From contig WLHL01000008.1 of NCBI GenBank assembly GCA_009702755.1, forward strand, positions 1-53,279: DNA of 53,279 bases. Direction: 5' to 3'. Shown piece after piece: positions 6,295-9,419 of the stretch; position 1 is the stretch's first letter; the number at the start of each line of letters is the position of its first letter. Under the pieces are notes generated by a model. It had not been told where the DNA came from. It saw nothing but the letters and a program-made list of their open reading frames with translations, and searched no databases. The position numbers and the translations under genes are program-made. Source of the stretch: Actinomycetota bacterium. GTDB lineage: Bacteria; Actinomycetota; Acidimicrobiia; Acidimicrobiales; Ilumatobacteraceae.

Positions 6295-7785
6295 TTAGGG
6301 CCATTCGCGGTGCACGGCCTCCACATAATCGGACCATTCGTTGTCAAGGACATCAAGGAAAGTGCGTGTCCAAGTCTCATAGAGAGGCCATTCATCGCCC
6401 ACCCATTGATGAGCTTCAGCATGAGTCTTCCCCTCGCGCAACATGTACCAAGCCTTCAATACAAAGGTGGTTCGGCTGCGTCCGCCATGACAGTGCACCA
6501 CGACTTGGCGACCCTCCTGCAGGAAGGCATCAATTGCTTCCACCGCCTCACGCAGTACAAAGAAGAGTTCCGGATTGCGATCCCCTTCGCTGTCACGCAT
6601 GTACACACCACGACGGTACGGATGATGAATAAAGCGATCGTCAGTAATGCAGAGAGACACAACACCAAAATCATTTGGCACTAATCGCGCACCATCCAAG
6701 TTTGATGCCCATACACCTAACTCGTGTACCTTCCCGGGCTGCACTGGAGGTTCTACCCAACTACGCGGCGCATTCCCTAAAGCCAACAAGCGTCGAGCCG
6801 TGTCGACAAGATCTTGACAGCGGTATTGCACTTTGCGACCGTCTGGCATCACAACATGACCGTGCACATACGTTGTCCAACGAATGGGGATTCCCTGCAA
6901 TCCGTAGAAGGCACCCGCCATTGAGCCGGCAATAGCTGCCACCGTGTCGGTGTCTCCACCAAGCTCAATGGCAGCGACTACCGCATCATGAAAACACGAT
7001 GTTGAACGCACAGCCCAGATTGCTTGCGCAACTGCGGTCCAGATCGTGCCATTTGGCGGACCAGCATGTGTCAGCGGATCAAAACTATGAGAGCAGATCT
7101 CGACAAATTGTTCCAGCACGACTGAGGCCAATGATGTGCCTGCCAAGTACTCAAATGTTGCCGTCACAGCTGTTTCAAAATCCCCCGTCACGATTGTCTG
7201 TCGGATGATCTCTGCAACGATGGCGGCTCCAGCACTTGCTGCAGGATCAAAGTGCGTGATCGATGCCTGAGCAACTGCAATCTCGTATGTCATTTCTCGT
7301 CCAGCAAGGACTCCCACGATTCCGACTGGCGCGATGCGCATGGCAGCACCGTTGCTTGCCGTGCGACCGCCCAACATCTGGTGAGCCTTCTCTGCCGCAC
7401 CAACATGAGAATCAAAACGAAGAGACGTGCCGATTGTGATTCCAACGTCAACAGCAGAATCTGCCCACGCACGGAAGTGCGCCCACACAACAGCTGGGTC
7501 AAAACCTTCTCCCGCTTCCAATGCCTCAGCAAGTGCCAGTGCCATCTGAGTGTCATCTGTGAACTCGCCTGGAGCCCAACCGAAAGAGCCACCACCAATC
7601 ATTTCCCCGATACCACCCAAGACTTCTGTTGGGAAGGTTTCTCCGTACAGGCCTGCACGCTTGAATTCGAACGGCGCTCCGACTGCGTCAGCTACCGCGC
7701 AACCGACCAGCGCTCCATACGCCCGCACTTGCTGTGGATGCGTGAGATCTCGGGGTGAAATTGGTGTGTTGTGGTCTCTTGTCAT
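6295..7785 (-). CDS. ADP-ribosylglycohydrolase fused to a dual-specificity phosphatase domain
   Basis: A 496-aa fusion. Residues about 20-335 are an ADP-ribosylglycohydrolase (DraG family): GCAVADAVGAPFEF (28-41), the metal-binding TDDTQ (76-80) and GGDTDT (276-281) are the classic dinuclear-metal motifs. DraG enzymes remove ADP-ribose from modified proteins or small molecules. Residues about 355-490 form a cysteine phosphatase with the P-loop HCHGGRSRT: nucleophile Cys432, X5, Arg438, i.e. CX5R of dual-specificity/tyrosine phosphatases; an Asp in MRDSEGD near 397 could be the general acid. AAGGAG lies six bases before the ATG. It is divergent from an NrtR-type regulator, supporting a link to ADP-ribose/NAD metabolism. 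Substrates unknown. Confidence 0.88.
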   Translation of the reverse strand: MTRDHNTPISPRDLTHPQQVRAYGALVGCAVADAVGAPFEFKRAGLYGETFPTEVLGGIGEMIGGGSFGWAPGEFTDDTQMALALAEALEAGEGFDPAVVWAHFRAWADSAVDVGITIGTSLRFDSHVGAAEKAHQMLGGRTASNGAAMRIAPVGIVGVLAGREMTYEIAVAQASITHFDPAASAGAAIVAEIIRQTIVTGDFETAVTATFEYLAGTSLASVVLEQFVEICSHSFDPLTHAGPPNGTIWTAVAQAIWAVRSTSCFHDAVVAAIELGGDTDTVAAIAGSMAGAFYGLQGIPIRWTTYVHGHVVMPDGRKVQYRCQDLVDTARRLLALGNAPRSWVEPPVQPGKVHELGVWASNLDGARLVPNDFGVVSLCITDDRFIHHPYRRGVYMRDSEGDRNPELFFVLREAVEAIDAFLQEGRQVVVHCHGGRSRTTFVLKAWYMLREGKTHAEAHQWVGDEWPLYETWTRTFLDVLDNEWSDYVEAVHREWP

Positions 7786-7798
7786 GTGGTCTCCTTCT

Positions 7799-7812
7799 AC
7801 AGCTTGCGCTGT
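7799..7812. promoter_or_regulatory. Small inverted repeat in the 5' leader of the DraG-phosphatase gene
   Basis: ACAGC-TTGC-GCTGT is a perfect five-base-pair hairpin with a four-base loop, immediately upstream of the AAGGAG ribosome-binding site of the DraG-phosphatase gene. It could affect initiation or be an operator half-site. It is short enough to occur by chance. Confidence 0.3.
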
Positions 7813-7828
7813 TGGTTTACAGTAGATT

Positions 7829-7862
7829 TGTCCCTAATATAACACATGGGGTGTGCCACCCC
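7829..7862. promoter_or_regulatory. Intergenic repeat motifs between the DraG-phosphatase and nrtR genes
   Basis: The 9-mer TGTCCCTAA (7829-7837) recurs in opposite orientation at 8702-8710, upstream of the VWA gene. Next to it GGGGTG-TGC-CACCCC (7848-7862) is a perfect six-base-pair inverted repeat. In a regulatory region shared by two divergent genes these are candidate protein-binding elements. The functional assignment is inference. Confidence 0.4.
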
Positions 7863-7879
7863 TGCATTAAGGGTCATGT

Positions 7880-7900
7880 CCACAACAAATGTGGCAAACT
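7880..7900 (+). promoter_or_regulatory. Candidate NrtR autoregulatory operator with adjoining -10-like box
   Basis: CCACA-ACAAA-TGTGG (7880-7894) is a perfect 5-5-5 palindrome. It is followed directly by CAAACT (7895-7900), a -10-like hexamer six bases before the ATG at 7907. A repressor bound here would cover the core promoter. A second 5-5-5 palindrome with the shared core ACAAAT lies before the VWA gene at 8715-8729. Known NrtR operators are palindromic, but their consensus varies by lineage, so identity with an NrtR box is not claimed. Confidence 0.45.
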
Positions 7901-7906
7901 ATCCAT

Positions 7907-8659
7907 ATGAGTGTCATGAAACGAACTAAACAAATGAACTTCTTTGTCTATGTCGACACAGTGATCTTCACCATCAATCCCGACCGTTCTGTTGATGCTC
8001 GAGACAGGCTTGAAGTGCTCGTCATGCAAAGACCAGAGAGACCTGACAAATCAAAGTGGGCCCTCCCTGGTGGTCTCGTGGGAGAAGACGAGCGTCTCGA
8101 AGAGACATCTATCCGCAAGGTGAGAGAAGAGACGGGAATTCAGCTCAAGCCAAAAGAACTCCACCAAGTCGCCGCCTTTGGCAATCCAGAACGTGACAAC
8201 AGATATCGAGCTATCGCTATTGCGTATGTGGCCCTTGTCCCCCACCCTGGGGCGACCAAGGCCATTTCACACTCTGACAAGGCCGAATTCATTCCCTACC
8301 GACTTTTACGCGACAAGAGAATGCTGGAATTCGACCACACCGACATCATCTACTCTGCCCGCAAGGCTGCGCGAAAGATGCTGGAAGACACCAGCGTTGC
8401 ATTGAACTTCTGCGGACCAAAGTTCACCATCAGTGAACTACGGGGCGTGTACGAGGCCTTTCTCCAGTACGAAGTTGATCCGGCAAACTTTCGCCGGAAG
8501 GTCGATGCAGTCAAAGACTTCGTCATCCCTCTCGATGAGTACGCAGACTTCGGTTCGTCTCCCGGCCGTCCAGCCCTGATGTACAAGCCAGGTCGCCTGA
8601 CTTCACTGCCCACACCTATCCGTTTCCGCCGACCCGATGGAAAGTACGTAGAAAAGTAA
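7907..8659 (+). CDS. nrtR: NrtR-type Nudix transcriptional regulator
   Basis: A 250-aa protein from the ATG at 7907; an upstream in-frame ATG at 7889 lies inside the palindrome 7880-7894 and is less likely, while 7916 and 7934 are alternatives. Residues about 10-145 are a Nudix domain. The Nudix box (56-78) reads GLVGEDE...RKVREETGI, so the first Glu of the canonical REUXEE is Lys71: the catalytic metal site is incomplete. Residues about 150-235 (KFTISELRGVYEAFL... NFRRKVDAV) match the winged-helix DNA-binding domain of NrtR. NrtR proteins sense ADP-ribose-type metabolites and repress NAD-related genes. The divergent DraG fusion and downstream VWA gene are the likely local targets (inference). 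Confidence 0.8.
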   Translation: MSVMKRTKQMNFFVYVDTVIFTINPDRSVDARDRLEVLVMQRPERPDKSKWALPGGLVGEDERLEETSIRKVREETGIQLKPKELHQVAAFGNPERDNRYRAIAIAYVALVPHPGATKAISHSDKAEFIPYRLLRDKRMLEFDHTDIIYSARKAARKMLEDTSVALNFCGPKFTISELRGVYEAFLQYEVDPANFRRKVDAVKDFVIPLDEYADFGSSPGRPALMYKPGRLTSLPTPIRFRRPDGKYVEK

Positions 8660-8671
8660 TTTCTACCTTAA

Positions 8672-8731
8672 TTGCAACTCTGACAGACCCCTGCCGTACA
8701 TTTAGGGACATAACGACACAAATAGTGTCCC
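8672..8731 (+). promoter_or_regulatory. Candidate promoter and operator of the VWA gene
   Basis: TTGCAA (8672-8677) and TACATT (8697-8702), separated by 19 bases, are a plausible but weak promoter. Around the predicted transcription start sits GACAC-AAATA-GTGTC (8715-8729), a perfect 5-5-5 palindrome, nested in a wider inverted repeat GGGACA (8705-8710) / TGTCCC (8726-8731). Such placement fits repressor blocking of initiation. The shared spacing with 7880-7894 and the shared TGTCCCTAA motif suggest one regulator for both sites. Confidence 0.5.
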
Positions 8732-8747
8732 GTACGAAAGGTAGACA

Positions 8748-9419
8748 ATGTCCACACACTCACTCAAGCCCACTCACGTGGCACTCCTCCTCGACCGTTC
8801 CGGTTCGATGGCTCCCCTCGTCGCCGATGTCATCGGTGGCGTGAATCAGTTCCTCACAGAACAACGCGCTCAGGGCAACGACGTTCGCGTCAGCATTGTG
8901 CAGTTTGATTCCAATGATCCCCAAGAGGTCAAGGTCTGGGGCGCACCTATCTCCGATGTCGGCAGTCTGACCACTGCAGACTTTCAACCTCGCGGTGGAA
9001 CACCTCTACTCGATGCAACCGGTCTTCTCATCGGCCGCGTGAAGGTTGATGCACAAGCACGCGTTGCAGCAGGTCTTGCTGAAGAAGACGTTGTGTTTGT
9101 CACCGTTACCGACGGCGAAGAGAACCAATCACGCGAGTTCACCCTTGATCAAATCAAGGCACTTGTCGATGCACAAACCGCTGCTGGCTGGACATTCGTG
9201 TTCTTGTCAGCTGGTCTGAACGCATATGCAGATGCTGCGGCAATGGGCTACAGCGCCGCTAACTCACAATCGTGGGAACGTCGCGGAGACAACACCCGCA
9301 TGGCTTTCAACAGCGTGTCCAAGGGCATGACCAACATGCGCGAAAAGAAGCGTCGCGGGATTTCGACAGAGAATGCGGAGTTCTTCGAGACCGGCAAGGA
9401 CGCCGAAGAAAACATCTAA
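8748..9419 (+). CDS. Stand-alone von Willebrand factor A (VWA) domain protein
   Basis: A 223-aa soluble protein that is almost entirely one VWA domain. The metal-ion-dependent adhesion site is complete: DRSGS (Asp16, Ser18, Ser20), Thr85 in RGGTPLLDA and Asp122 in VTDGEEN. No signal peptide or membrane segment is visible, so it acts in the cytoplasm, probably as a metal-dependent protein-binding module. The short C-terminal tail (about 195-223) is charged. GAAAGG precedes the ATG. It follows nrtR in the same direction across an 88-bp gap with its own palindrome, so it is probably a separate unit under the same control. Partner and function unknown. Confidence 0.85.
   Translation: MSTHSLKPTHVALLLDRSGSMAPLVADVIGGVNQFLTEQRAQGNDVRVSIVQFDSNDPQEVKVWGAPISDVGSLTTADFQPRGGTPLLDATGLLIGRVKVDAQARVAAGLAEEDVVFVTVTDGEENQSREFTLDQIKALVDAQTAAGWTFVFLSAGLNAYADAAAMGYSAANSQSWERRGDNTRMAFNSVSKGMTNMREKKRRGISTENAEFFETGKDAEENI

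What the first reader, a model, noticed from the sequence alone, without database searches (positions are those of the whole stretch)
6295..9419. NrtR-centred ADP-ribosylation island: DraG-phosphatase fusion, Nudix regulator and stand-alone VWA protein
Seen: a DraG domain fused to a CX5R phosphatase, divergent from an NrtR-like regulator, and a cytoplasmic VWA protein behind it; 5-5-5 palindromes before nrtR (7880-7894) and the VWA gene (8715-8729), and a shared inverted TGTCCCTAA motif. Known: NrtR senses ADP-ribose-type ligands; DraG removes ADP-ribose. Inference: a small NAD/ADP-ribose response module in which one enzyme removes both ADP-ribose and phosphate and the VWA protein tethers the target. 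No matching ADP-ribosyltransferase is in the window.
Basis: partly seen in the sequence, partly recalled or inferred. Interest (0 to 1): 0.75.

Follow-up and report, generated by a model that had tools for sequence, protein, structure and literature searches.

The report
ADP-ribose removal module with DNA-damage promoters
Three neighbouring genes in an actinobacterium form a predicted kit for stripping ADP-ribose off modified molecules, already described in outline by others; the new point is that two of them carry the same kind of promoter element as the DNA-repair gene recA, so the kit may belong to the cell's DNA-damage response.

Summary
The genes are as described: a DraG-type ADP-ribosyl hydrolase fused to a CX5R phosphatase (6295-7785, minus), an NrtR-type Nudix regulator (start more likely 7907) and a stand-alone vWA protein (8748-9419). 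Active-site motifs of fusion and vWA are intact; the regulator's Nudix box is degenerate (E to K), so it is probably a sensor only. The families co-occur in the genus (NrtR and fusion: 17 both, 12 neither, 3 one only, of 32 genomes). This fits the ARG-phosphatase-Nudix-vWA system predicted by Iyer et al. 2022, so the module itself is not new. New here: a promoter model trained only on recA promoters finds the same element before the fusion (14 of 15), the vWA gene (15 of 20) and an unlinked HD-phosphohydrolase gene (5 of 11), against 2 of 258 control genes (a recA and a ruvC) and 2 of 19 nrtR genes, both borderline. The element also precedes recC- and SbcD-type genes, and the genome has a PafB/PafC-like pair. 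I infer a lineage-specific rewiring into a PafBC-type DNA-damage regulon, with NrtR as a second gate. Fusion loci of other lineages lack the element (0 of 65). The palindromes are weak evidence alone. Nothing has been measured.

The parts
6295..7785 (-). draG-ptp: 496-aa fusion of ADP-ribosyl hydrolase and dual-specificity-type phosphatase
   Evidence: Pfam PF03747 res 24-300 E 1.9e-56, PF00782 res 409-462 E 8e-9; nearest solved sequence DraG 2woc E 1e-25
6886..7716 (-). DraG (ARG) domain with metal motifs FTDDT and GGDTDT and the TH motif (T177 H178)
   Evidence: domain match; F75-T79, T177, H178, D278, D280, T281 invariant in 27 aligned fusions
6400..6561 (-). phosphatase domain, signature HCHGGRSRT (C432, R438); candidate general acid D398 lies just N-terminal of this span
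   Evidence: PF00782; D398, H431, C432, G435, S437, R438, T439 invariant in 27 aligned fusions; role of D398 is inference
7907..8659 (+). nrtR: Nudix sensor plus NrtR winged helix, likely start 7907 (ORF list start 7889); Nudix box RKVREETG has lost the E of REUxEExGU
8748..9419 (+). vwa: stand-alone vWA protein with intact MIDAS
8681..8702 (+). recA-type (P1/PafBC-like) promoter element of vwa, TGACAGACCCCTGCCGTACATT, 45 nt before the start codon
   Evidence: score 16.4 with a model trained on recA promoters only; 99th percentile of 258 controls 6.3
7836..7858 (-). recA-type promoter element of draG-ptp, TGGCACACCC-catgtgt-TATATT, spacer one base longer than in recA
   Evidence: two-block score 12.3 against a 99th percentile of 7.1, but only 0.6 with the recA spacer; similar sites in L003-L007 and L009
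8700..8729 (+). candidate NrtR operator of vwa: ATTTAGGGACATAACGACACAAATAGTGTC, after the -10 box; holds palindrome 8715-8729
   Evidence: palindrome identical in L003-L005; draG-vwa match in L004 p 0.005, the lowest value 200 shuffles can give; operator role is inference
7822..7839 (-). candidate NrtR operator of draG-ptp: TATTAGGGACAAATCTAC, just after the -10 box
   Evidence: 18-nt match to vwa: window p 0.139, L004 0.005, L005 0.045; weak, inference
7866..7894 (+). candidate NrtR operator of nrtR itself: ATTAAGGGTCATGTCCACAACAAATGTGG
   Evidence: 26-nt match to vwa: window p 0.010, L004 0.164, L005 0.498; palindrome not kept in L004, L005; inference
7799..7812 (-). hairpin with GCAA loop in the 5' leader of draG-ptp
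   Evidence: -7.0 kcal/mol, z -2.6; hairpins at the same place in L004 (z -3.7), L005 (z -2.7) and, with a different stem, L007 (z -1.6)

Best explanation
This is an inducible module for removing ADP-ribose from macromolecules that, in this lineage (probably Ilumatobacteraceae, Acidimicrobiia), has been drawn into a PafBC-type DNA-damage regulon. Proposed working: NrtR, a Nudix sensor that has lost a catalytic residue, sits on operators at the starts of draG-ptp, vwa and nrtR and represses them; free ADP-ribose releases it (inferred from other NrtR proteins). Independently, single-stranded DNA activates PafBC, which recruits the housekeeping RNA polymerase to the -26/-10 element before draG-ptp, vwa and an unlinked HD-phosphohydrolase gene, as before recA. 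Both signals together give full expression. The DraG domain then hydrolyses the ADP-ribose bond on a protein or DNA, the fused phosphatase and the HD enzyme process phosphorylated products, and the vWA protein binds modified polypeptides or a repair complex. Shown here: genes, intact active sites, Nudix degeneracy, co-occurrence, shared promoter element, presence of a PafB/PafC-like pair. Inferred: all binding, induction, substrates and the vWA role.
For: A model trained on 30 recA promoters scores all 30 at 17.8 or more. With a spacer of 5-7 allowed, scores above the 99th percentile of 258 control genes: draG 14 of 15, vwa 15 of 20, HD 5 of 11 (own HD gene 11.3), nrtR 2 of 19 (7.9 and 7.4, threshold 7.1); rank-sum p 6e-10, 1.5e-12, 6e-7, 0.16. 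The 2 controls above it are a recA that escaped my filter and a ruvC of another family. Strict recA-derived pattern: 58 hits in 61 genomes against 4 for its reversal; 24 of the 58 are recA, as the pattern was built to find, which leaves 34 against 4. Among the 34: metallophosphoesterases read as SbcD (2), PD-(D/E)XK nuclease genes, a DEAD helicase, DUF222-like genes, the vwa of another family. Looser pattern: 43 against 11 in 32 genus genomes, including recC-type, vwa, draG and HD genes. Own genome: two WYL matches, adjacent; one best matches chain 9fnd_X (E 6e-19; PafBC 6sj9 3e-16), the other PafC (E 3e-27). HD in 11 of 20 genomes with the system and 0 of 12 without, p 0.0016. Precedent: S. 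coelicolor ADP-ribosyl hydrolase SCO6735 is under a RecA-NDp promoter, UV-induced, and removes ADP-ribose from DNA (passages).
Against: The element is clade-specific: 0 of 23 other freshwater/planctomycete and 0 of 42 Kineococcus/Geodermatophilaceae fusion loci have it, and 0 of 73 loci scanned has the mycobacterial form. A simple form, TGnCACACC-N7-TAnnnT, fits only 5 of 30 recA promoters; the trained model was needed. ruvC lacks the element (1 of 28 above 5.8). In the window's draG the spacer is one base longer and the recA-spacer score is 0.6; the variable spacer was allowed after seeing this. With the recA spacer the counts fall to draG 7 of 15, vwa 11 of 20, HD 4 of 11, nrtR 0 of 19. In the own genome the bare one-mismatch pattern is no more frequent than its reversal (21 and 21). 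Of the 34 non-recA hits many have no known repair role. Operator similarity is modest: draG-vwa p 0.005-0.14, nrtR-vwa 0.01-0.50, none in L009. SCO6735 deletion gave no significant damage-sensitive phenotype. No expression data were available.
Confidence: 0.55

Rival explanations
1. Counter-measure against ADP-ribosylation by phage enzymes, as Iyer et al. proposed: kept off by NrtR, induced by ADP-ribose released during infection; the recA-type element only adds a general stress input.
For: Same gene set as the published system. DarT family not found in 61 of 61 genomes, so the modifier may be extrinsic (other transferase families not searched). Patchy presence: 20 of 32 genus genomes. Relatives of vWA in 222 and of the ARG domain in 33 phage records.
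Against: PADLOC gives no defence family for the three proteins and the HD protein beyond a weak Nudix match. Twelve flanking ORFs scanned show polysaccharide, acyl-CoA dehydrogenase, hydrolase, luciferase-like and transporter families, no defence island. Does not predict the recA-type promoters, though compatible with them.
Confidence: 0.25
2. NAD or free ADP-ribose housekeeping module: NrtR senses ADP-ribose, the enzymes clear ADP-ribose derivatives.
For: NrtR controls NAD synthesis in M. smegmatis (passages). The domain chemistry fits.
Against: No NAD synthesis or salvage family among the 12 flanking ORFs scanned in the window (relatives not scanned for this); the recurring NrtR partners are the fusion and vWA.
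Confidence: 0.1
3. The shared element is just a common promoter type of this lineage and says nothing about DNA damage.
For: It also precedes genes with no known repair role (HxlR-like regulators, a 68-aa zinc-ribbon gene, unknown families); ruvC lacks it.
Against: 2 of 258 control genes exceed the threshold, and these are a recA and a ruvC, while all 30 recA loci score high and repair-type genes recur; the geometry is close to the P1 consensus tTGTCRgtg-8 nt-TannnT.
Confidence: 0.1

Closest known systems
ARG-centred conflict systems with Nudix/WYL regulator, rhodanese-phosphatase superfamily phosphatase and vWA or other chaperone (Iyer et al. 2022, PMC9503650; section 3.8 read, other passages seen)
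   Same: ARG fused to a phosphatase, Nudix-HTH regulator, vWA gene, HD phosphatase as an optional part, no linked transferase seen, actinobacteria
   Different: Parts are spread over loci here, and draG-ptp, vwa and HD have recA-type promoter elements; section 3.8 speaks of repressors and does not mention DNA damage. The Nudix box is degenerate, against its suggested co-processing role
SCO6735, Streptomyces macrodomain ADP-ribosyl hydrolase under RecA-NDp (PMC5087735, PMC9411070; passages)
   Same: ADP-ribosyl hydrolase under a PafBC-type DNA-damage promoter
   Different: Macrodomain, not DraG fold; no Nudix regulator, phosphatase or vWA mentioned in the passages seen
NrtR regulators (M. smegmatis NrtR, PMC6800001, passages; AraR 5bs6; 3gz5, which I recall as Shewanella NrtR)
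   Same: Nudix domain plus NrtR winged helix, degenerate Nudix motif as in M. smegmatis, ADP-ribose as expected ligand
   Different: Proposed targets are ADP-ribose-removing genes, not NAD or arabinose genes; stretches here differ from GTTTTCGA-N7-TCGAAAAC
DraG / Tri1 / ARH3 hydrolases
   Same: Both metal motifs kept; solved matches DraG 2woc, 6dre (which I recall as Tri1) and ARH3
   Different: C-terminal phosphatase fusion; far below NCBIfam equivalog cut-offs for DraG and Tri1

Membership tests
ARG-centred system of Iyer et al. 2022 | ARG domain without a linked ADP-ribosyltransferase | tested here: met
   PF03747 E 1.9e-56; no transferase family in 12 flanking ORFs between 68 and 16450; DarT family 0 of 61 genomes; other transferase families not searched in the genomes
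ARG-centred system of Iyer et al. 2022 | Phosphatase fused or adjacent | tested here: met
   DSPc E 8e-9, CX5R invariant in 27 aligned fusions
ARG-centred system of Iyer et al. 2022 | Nudix (or WYL) one-component regulator | tested here: met
   NUDIX + NrtR_WHD; co-occurrence p 5e-6
ARG-centred system of Iyer et al. 2022 | vWA or other predicted peptide-binding chaperone | tested here: met
   MIDAS intact; co-occurrence with NrtR p 3e-5; chaperone role not tested
ARG-centred system of Iyer et al. 2022 | Acts against virus-made ADP-ribosylation | not testable with these tools
   needs phage assays
NrtR family | Nudix plus NrtR winged helix | tested here: met
   below the NCBIfam equivalog cut-off
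NrtR family | binds a palindrome before its own and target genes, released by ADP-ribose | tested here: inconclusive
   shared stretch p 0.005-0.14 (draG-vwa), 0.01-0.50 (nrtR-vwa); palindrome conserved at vwa, not at nrtR; binding not testable
active Nudix hydrolase | Nudix box GX5EX7REUXEEXGU | tested here: not met
   GLVGEDERLEETSIRKVREETGI, E replaced by K; RKV in near relatives, RIV in some, RE kept in several distant ones
DraG/ADP-ribosyl hydrolase | binuclear metal motifs | tested here: met
   FTDDT in 81 of 81 fusion rows; D278, D280, T281 invariant in 27
PafBC (RecA-NDp/P1) regulon | recA-type element with TAnnnT -10 before the gene | tested here: met
   vwa 16.4 with recA spacer; draG only with spacer +1 (two-block 12.3, recA spacer 0.6)
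PafBC (RecA-NDp/P1) regulon | PafB and PafC in the genome | tested here: met
   adjacent WYL pair matching PafBC structures
PafBC (RecA-NDp/P1) regulon | induction by DNA damage, dependent on PafBC | not testable with these tools
   needs expression data

The most novel reading that the evidence does not exclude
A two-signal repair circuit: ADP-ribosylated DNA (or a repair protein) stalls replication, single-stranded DNA turns on the PafBC promoters of draG-ptp, vwa, HD and recA, while ADP-ribose freed by DraG lifts NrtR; the fusion and the HD enzyme strip the adduct and clean the phosphate, making this a DraG-type counterpart of the DarG/SCO6735 macrodomain route of direct DNA repair.
Probability: 0.25. 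Interest if true: 0.75.

Novelty: new variant of a known kind. Interest (0 to 1): 0.55.

Why it matters
The section that predicted the ARG systems gives them an antiviral role and does not mention DNA damage. A shared recA-type promoter would give a concrete, testable input signal, point to DNA or repair proteins as possible substrates, and add a DraG-fold case to the damage-induced ADP-ribosyl hydrolases already reported (SCO6735; the same paper also cites PARG of D. radiodurans). The promoter model also yields a candidate PafBC regulon for Acidimicrobiia.

Tried and rejected
Bare pattern GACACACCN7TAnnnT with one mismatch in the own genome: 21 hits, 21 for the reversed control, so rejected as evidence by itself. 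Mycobacterial P1 form before the fusion gene: 0 of 73 loci. ruvC as a positive control failed: 1 of 28 scored loci above 5.8, two of 30 not scored. A common palindrome across NrtR clades, looked for by eye: arms and spacers differ, no consensus claimed. Palindromes as stand-alone evidence: 82 in the window. DarT as matching transferase: 0 of 61. Defence-island reading: no support. Second DraG gene of the own genome (C1:62872): upstream score 3.4, below threshold.

The first test used 73 control genes, the second 258 and a variable spacer. One control is recA of L274, which escaped my filter, one is a ruvC; both were left in. Dropped before the counts: draG L135 (duplicate), L149 (N-terminus missing), L150 (no start region); vwa L114 and nrtR L084 (duplicates); nrtR L103 (too short). 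The vwa set includes L130 and L131 from other families and L133, a broken copy. For co-occurrence I took matches of E below 1e-20 as present; weaker NrtR matches in G016 and G017 were not counted. The split of the 80 fusion loci into near (15), other (23) and Kineococcus/Geodermatophilaceae (42) was made by me after seeing the sites. The names SbcD, Lhr, RmuC, AddB, ComEC, ComF, 13E12, XseA, RadA, HxlR, integrase and methyltransferase for genes behind the element are my reading; Pfam gave Metallophos (2), PDDEXK_1, DEAD, a DUF222 match below its cut-off, Exonuc_V_gamma, UvrD-helicase, and OB-fold and ATPase domains for the tested pieces, and nothing for the AddB, ComEC and one HNH-type piece.

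
Full report
Observation. The three genes are present as described. The fusion is 496 aa: ADP-ribosylglycohydrolase (res 24-300) and dual-specificity-type phosphatase (409-462). Its closest solved relatives by sequence are DraG (2woc, E 1e-25), 6dre (which I recall as Tri1) and, lower, ARH3; for the phosphatase a weak match, ShufPTP. In 27 aligned fusions F75-M81 (FTDDTQM), T177-H178, D278/D280/T281, D398 and H431-C432, G435, S437-T439 are invariant. 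The regulator has NUDIX and NrtR winged-helix domains and matches AraR (5bs6) and 3gz5 over most of its length. Its Nudix box lost the first E of REUxEExGU (RKVREET); near relatives share RKV, some have RIV, several distant ones keep RE. The vWA protein is weak in Pfam but has an intact MIDAS.

Where it is. The window lies in a 1.84-Mb, 94-contig genome, 85% complete. The nearest fusion locus (98%) is in an Ilumatobacteraceae MAG (L003); the host's own name is not given, so the family is inference. Twelve flanking ORFs between 68 and 16450 gave polysaccharide, acyl-CoA dehydrogenase, hydrolase, luciferase-like, transporter and response-regulator-like matches or nothing, and no transferase or NAD family.

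Conservation. Of 177 relatives found in the genome collection the best 80 were kept, mostly actinobacterial by title, and in all 80 the phosphatase part was found too. In the 32 genomes of the genus (own one included) NrtR was found in 19, the fusion (or its pieces at contig ends) in 18, vWA in 17; NrtR and fusion together in 17, neither in 12 (Fisher p 5e-6); NrtR and vWA 16 and 12 (p 3e-5); fusion and vWA 15 and 12 (p 2e-4). Genomes are related and incomplete, so these p values are optimistic; with the 21 genomes of at least 80% completeness the first is 1e-4. In G001, G009, G021, G025, G027 and G031 vWA or the fusion sits apart from nrtR and is still present. In G031 the vWA copy beside nrtR is broken while another copy elsewhere is whole.

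Prior art. Section 3.8 of Iyer et al. 2022 (PMC9503650, that section read in full) describes ARG-centred systems with a Nudix or WYL regulator, a fused or adjacent phosphatase, a vWA or other predicted chaperone, sometimes an HD phosphatase, in actinobacteria and others, and proposes that they undo viral ADP-ribosylation. The window's module fits the gene-content features I could test. The module is therefore known in outline.

The shared promoter element. Upstream stretches of draG and vwa in many genomes, linked or not, showed a directional ACACCC...TAnnnT block. I then took recA promoters of 30 loci. A simple form fitted 5 of 30; a 22-nt model trained on the 30 alone, from a seed typed after I had seen both sets, scores all 30 at 17.8 or more. 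On 170 nt before each start, with the recA spacer, 99th percentile of 258 control genes 6.3: draG 7 of 15, vwa 11 of 20, HD 4 of 11, nrtR 0 of 19 above it. With a spacer of 5-7 (allowed after seeing the window's draG), 99th percentile 7.1: draG 14 of 15, vwa 15 of 20, HD 5 of 11, nrtR 2 of 19. The two nrtR cases are the window's clade at 7.9 and 7.4; the two controls above are a recA and a ruvC. In the window vwa scores 16.4 (recA spacer) and draG 12.3 (variable) but 0.6 with the recA spacer.

What the element is. A strict recA-derived pattern hit 58 places in 61 genomes against 4 for the same pattern reversed. By my count are recA, as built in; of the other 34 some are metallophosphoesterases read as SbcD (2), PD-(D/E)XK nuclease genes (2, one tested), a DEAD helicase, DUF222-like genes (3, one tested, below cut-off) and the vwa of another family; small zinc-ribbon genes (7) and others have no known link. 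A looser pattern gave 43 against 11 in the genus, with recC-type, vwa, draG and HD genes behind it, and a RadA-like gene in another family. With one mismatch UvrD-type and XseA-type genes of the own genome appear, but there hits equal the control. The geometry is close to the published P1 consensus tTGTCRgtg-8 nt-TannnT (PMC5656591, passage); PafBC acts through RecA-NDp and a -26 motif (PMC6789036, PMC11804915, passages). The own genome has two WYL matches in adjacent genes that match PafBC structures. I conclude that draG-ptp and vwa probably belong to a PafBC-type regulon. That ruvC lacks the element speaks against a simple rule that repair genes have it.

Unlinked member. One such element lies 59 nt before an HD-domain phosphohydrolase gene on another contig (C1:107925-108605; two-block score 11.3). 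Homologues (E below 1e-30) were found in 11 genus genomes, all among the 20 with the system, none among the 12 without (p 0.0016); a more distant HD match lies next to nrtR in G020, G021 and G027. In G003, where no such HD gene was found, the element stands before the homologue of the small zinc-ribbon gene that follows HD in the own genome.

Limits of the element. It is restricted: 14 of 15 fusion loci in or near the genus, 0 of 23 and 0 of 42 elsewhere (grouping made after the fact). It looks like a lineage-specific rewiring, not a trait of the system.

NrtR control. Shuffle tests in window, L004 and L005 give p 0.139, 0.005 and 0.045 for draG-vwa (18 nt) and 0.010, 0.164 and 0.498 for nrtR-vwa (26 nt), and no signal in L009; many comparisons were made. 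Palindrome 8715-8729 is conserved, 7880-7894 is not. Autorepression and ADP-ribose release are inferred from M. smegmatis NrtR (PMC6800001, passages).

Function. SCO6735 of S. coelicolor, a macrodomain ADP-ribosyl hydrolase, has a RecA-NDp promoter, is UV-induced fivefold and removes ADP-ribose from thymidine in DNA; its deletion gave no significant damage sensitivity (PMC5087735, PMC9411070, passages). It makes a DNA or repair-protein substrate plausible here. DarT was not found in 61 genomes, so a modifier, if any, is another family or extrinsic. Novelty searches: in an open-licence library only, listings seen. One search found no paper with all of ADP-ribosylglycohydrolase, DNA damage and PafBC (64 papers with two of three, 12 shown).

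Verdict. Real module, known in outline; the recA-type promoters on its genes are the new part. No claim of measured regulation or activity is made.

Noticed in passing
window 7799-7812 (minus): Hairpin ACAGC-GCAA-GCTGT in the draG-ptp leader; L004 has loop GAGA, L005 GAAT, and L007 a different stem CCCCAG-GTAC-CTGGGG at the same place.
   Followed up: partly
L336, L340, L344, L369, L370, L371 (six genus genomes): A 68- to 82-aa acidic zinc-ribbon protein (MSDIEFCPECEAP...) has the strict recA-type element in six genomes; function unknown.
   Followed up: no
L218, L230, L232, L233, L238, L257: A 144-aa family (MLN/MFxAS...DVPRP/DIPRP) without a Pfam match for the one member tested has the looser element in many genus genomes.
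   Followed up: no
phage records, e.g. NC_073368.1 gp59 (L388): Relatives of the vWA protein occur in 222 phage records, 153 of them Streptomyces or Microbacterium phages; in phage Megan two genes before the ssDNA-binding protein.
   Followed up: partly
L216 (G028), L224 (G015): Stand-alone phosphatase-like genes with CX5R signatures have the looser element; the one in G028 lies downstream of the HD gene (weak DSPc match for L216).
   Followed up: no
L001 (G000:C1:62872-63693): A second DraG gene in the own genome without a phosphatase hit, behind a small ORF; promoter score below threshold.
   Followed up: partly
recA promoters of the genus within L264-L293: A LexA-like box CGAACAGGTGTTCG stands just upstream of the P1-like element, so both damage inputs seem stacked at recA (the box name is recalled).
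   Followed up: no
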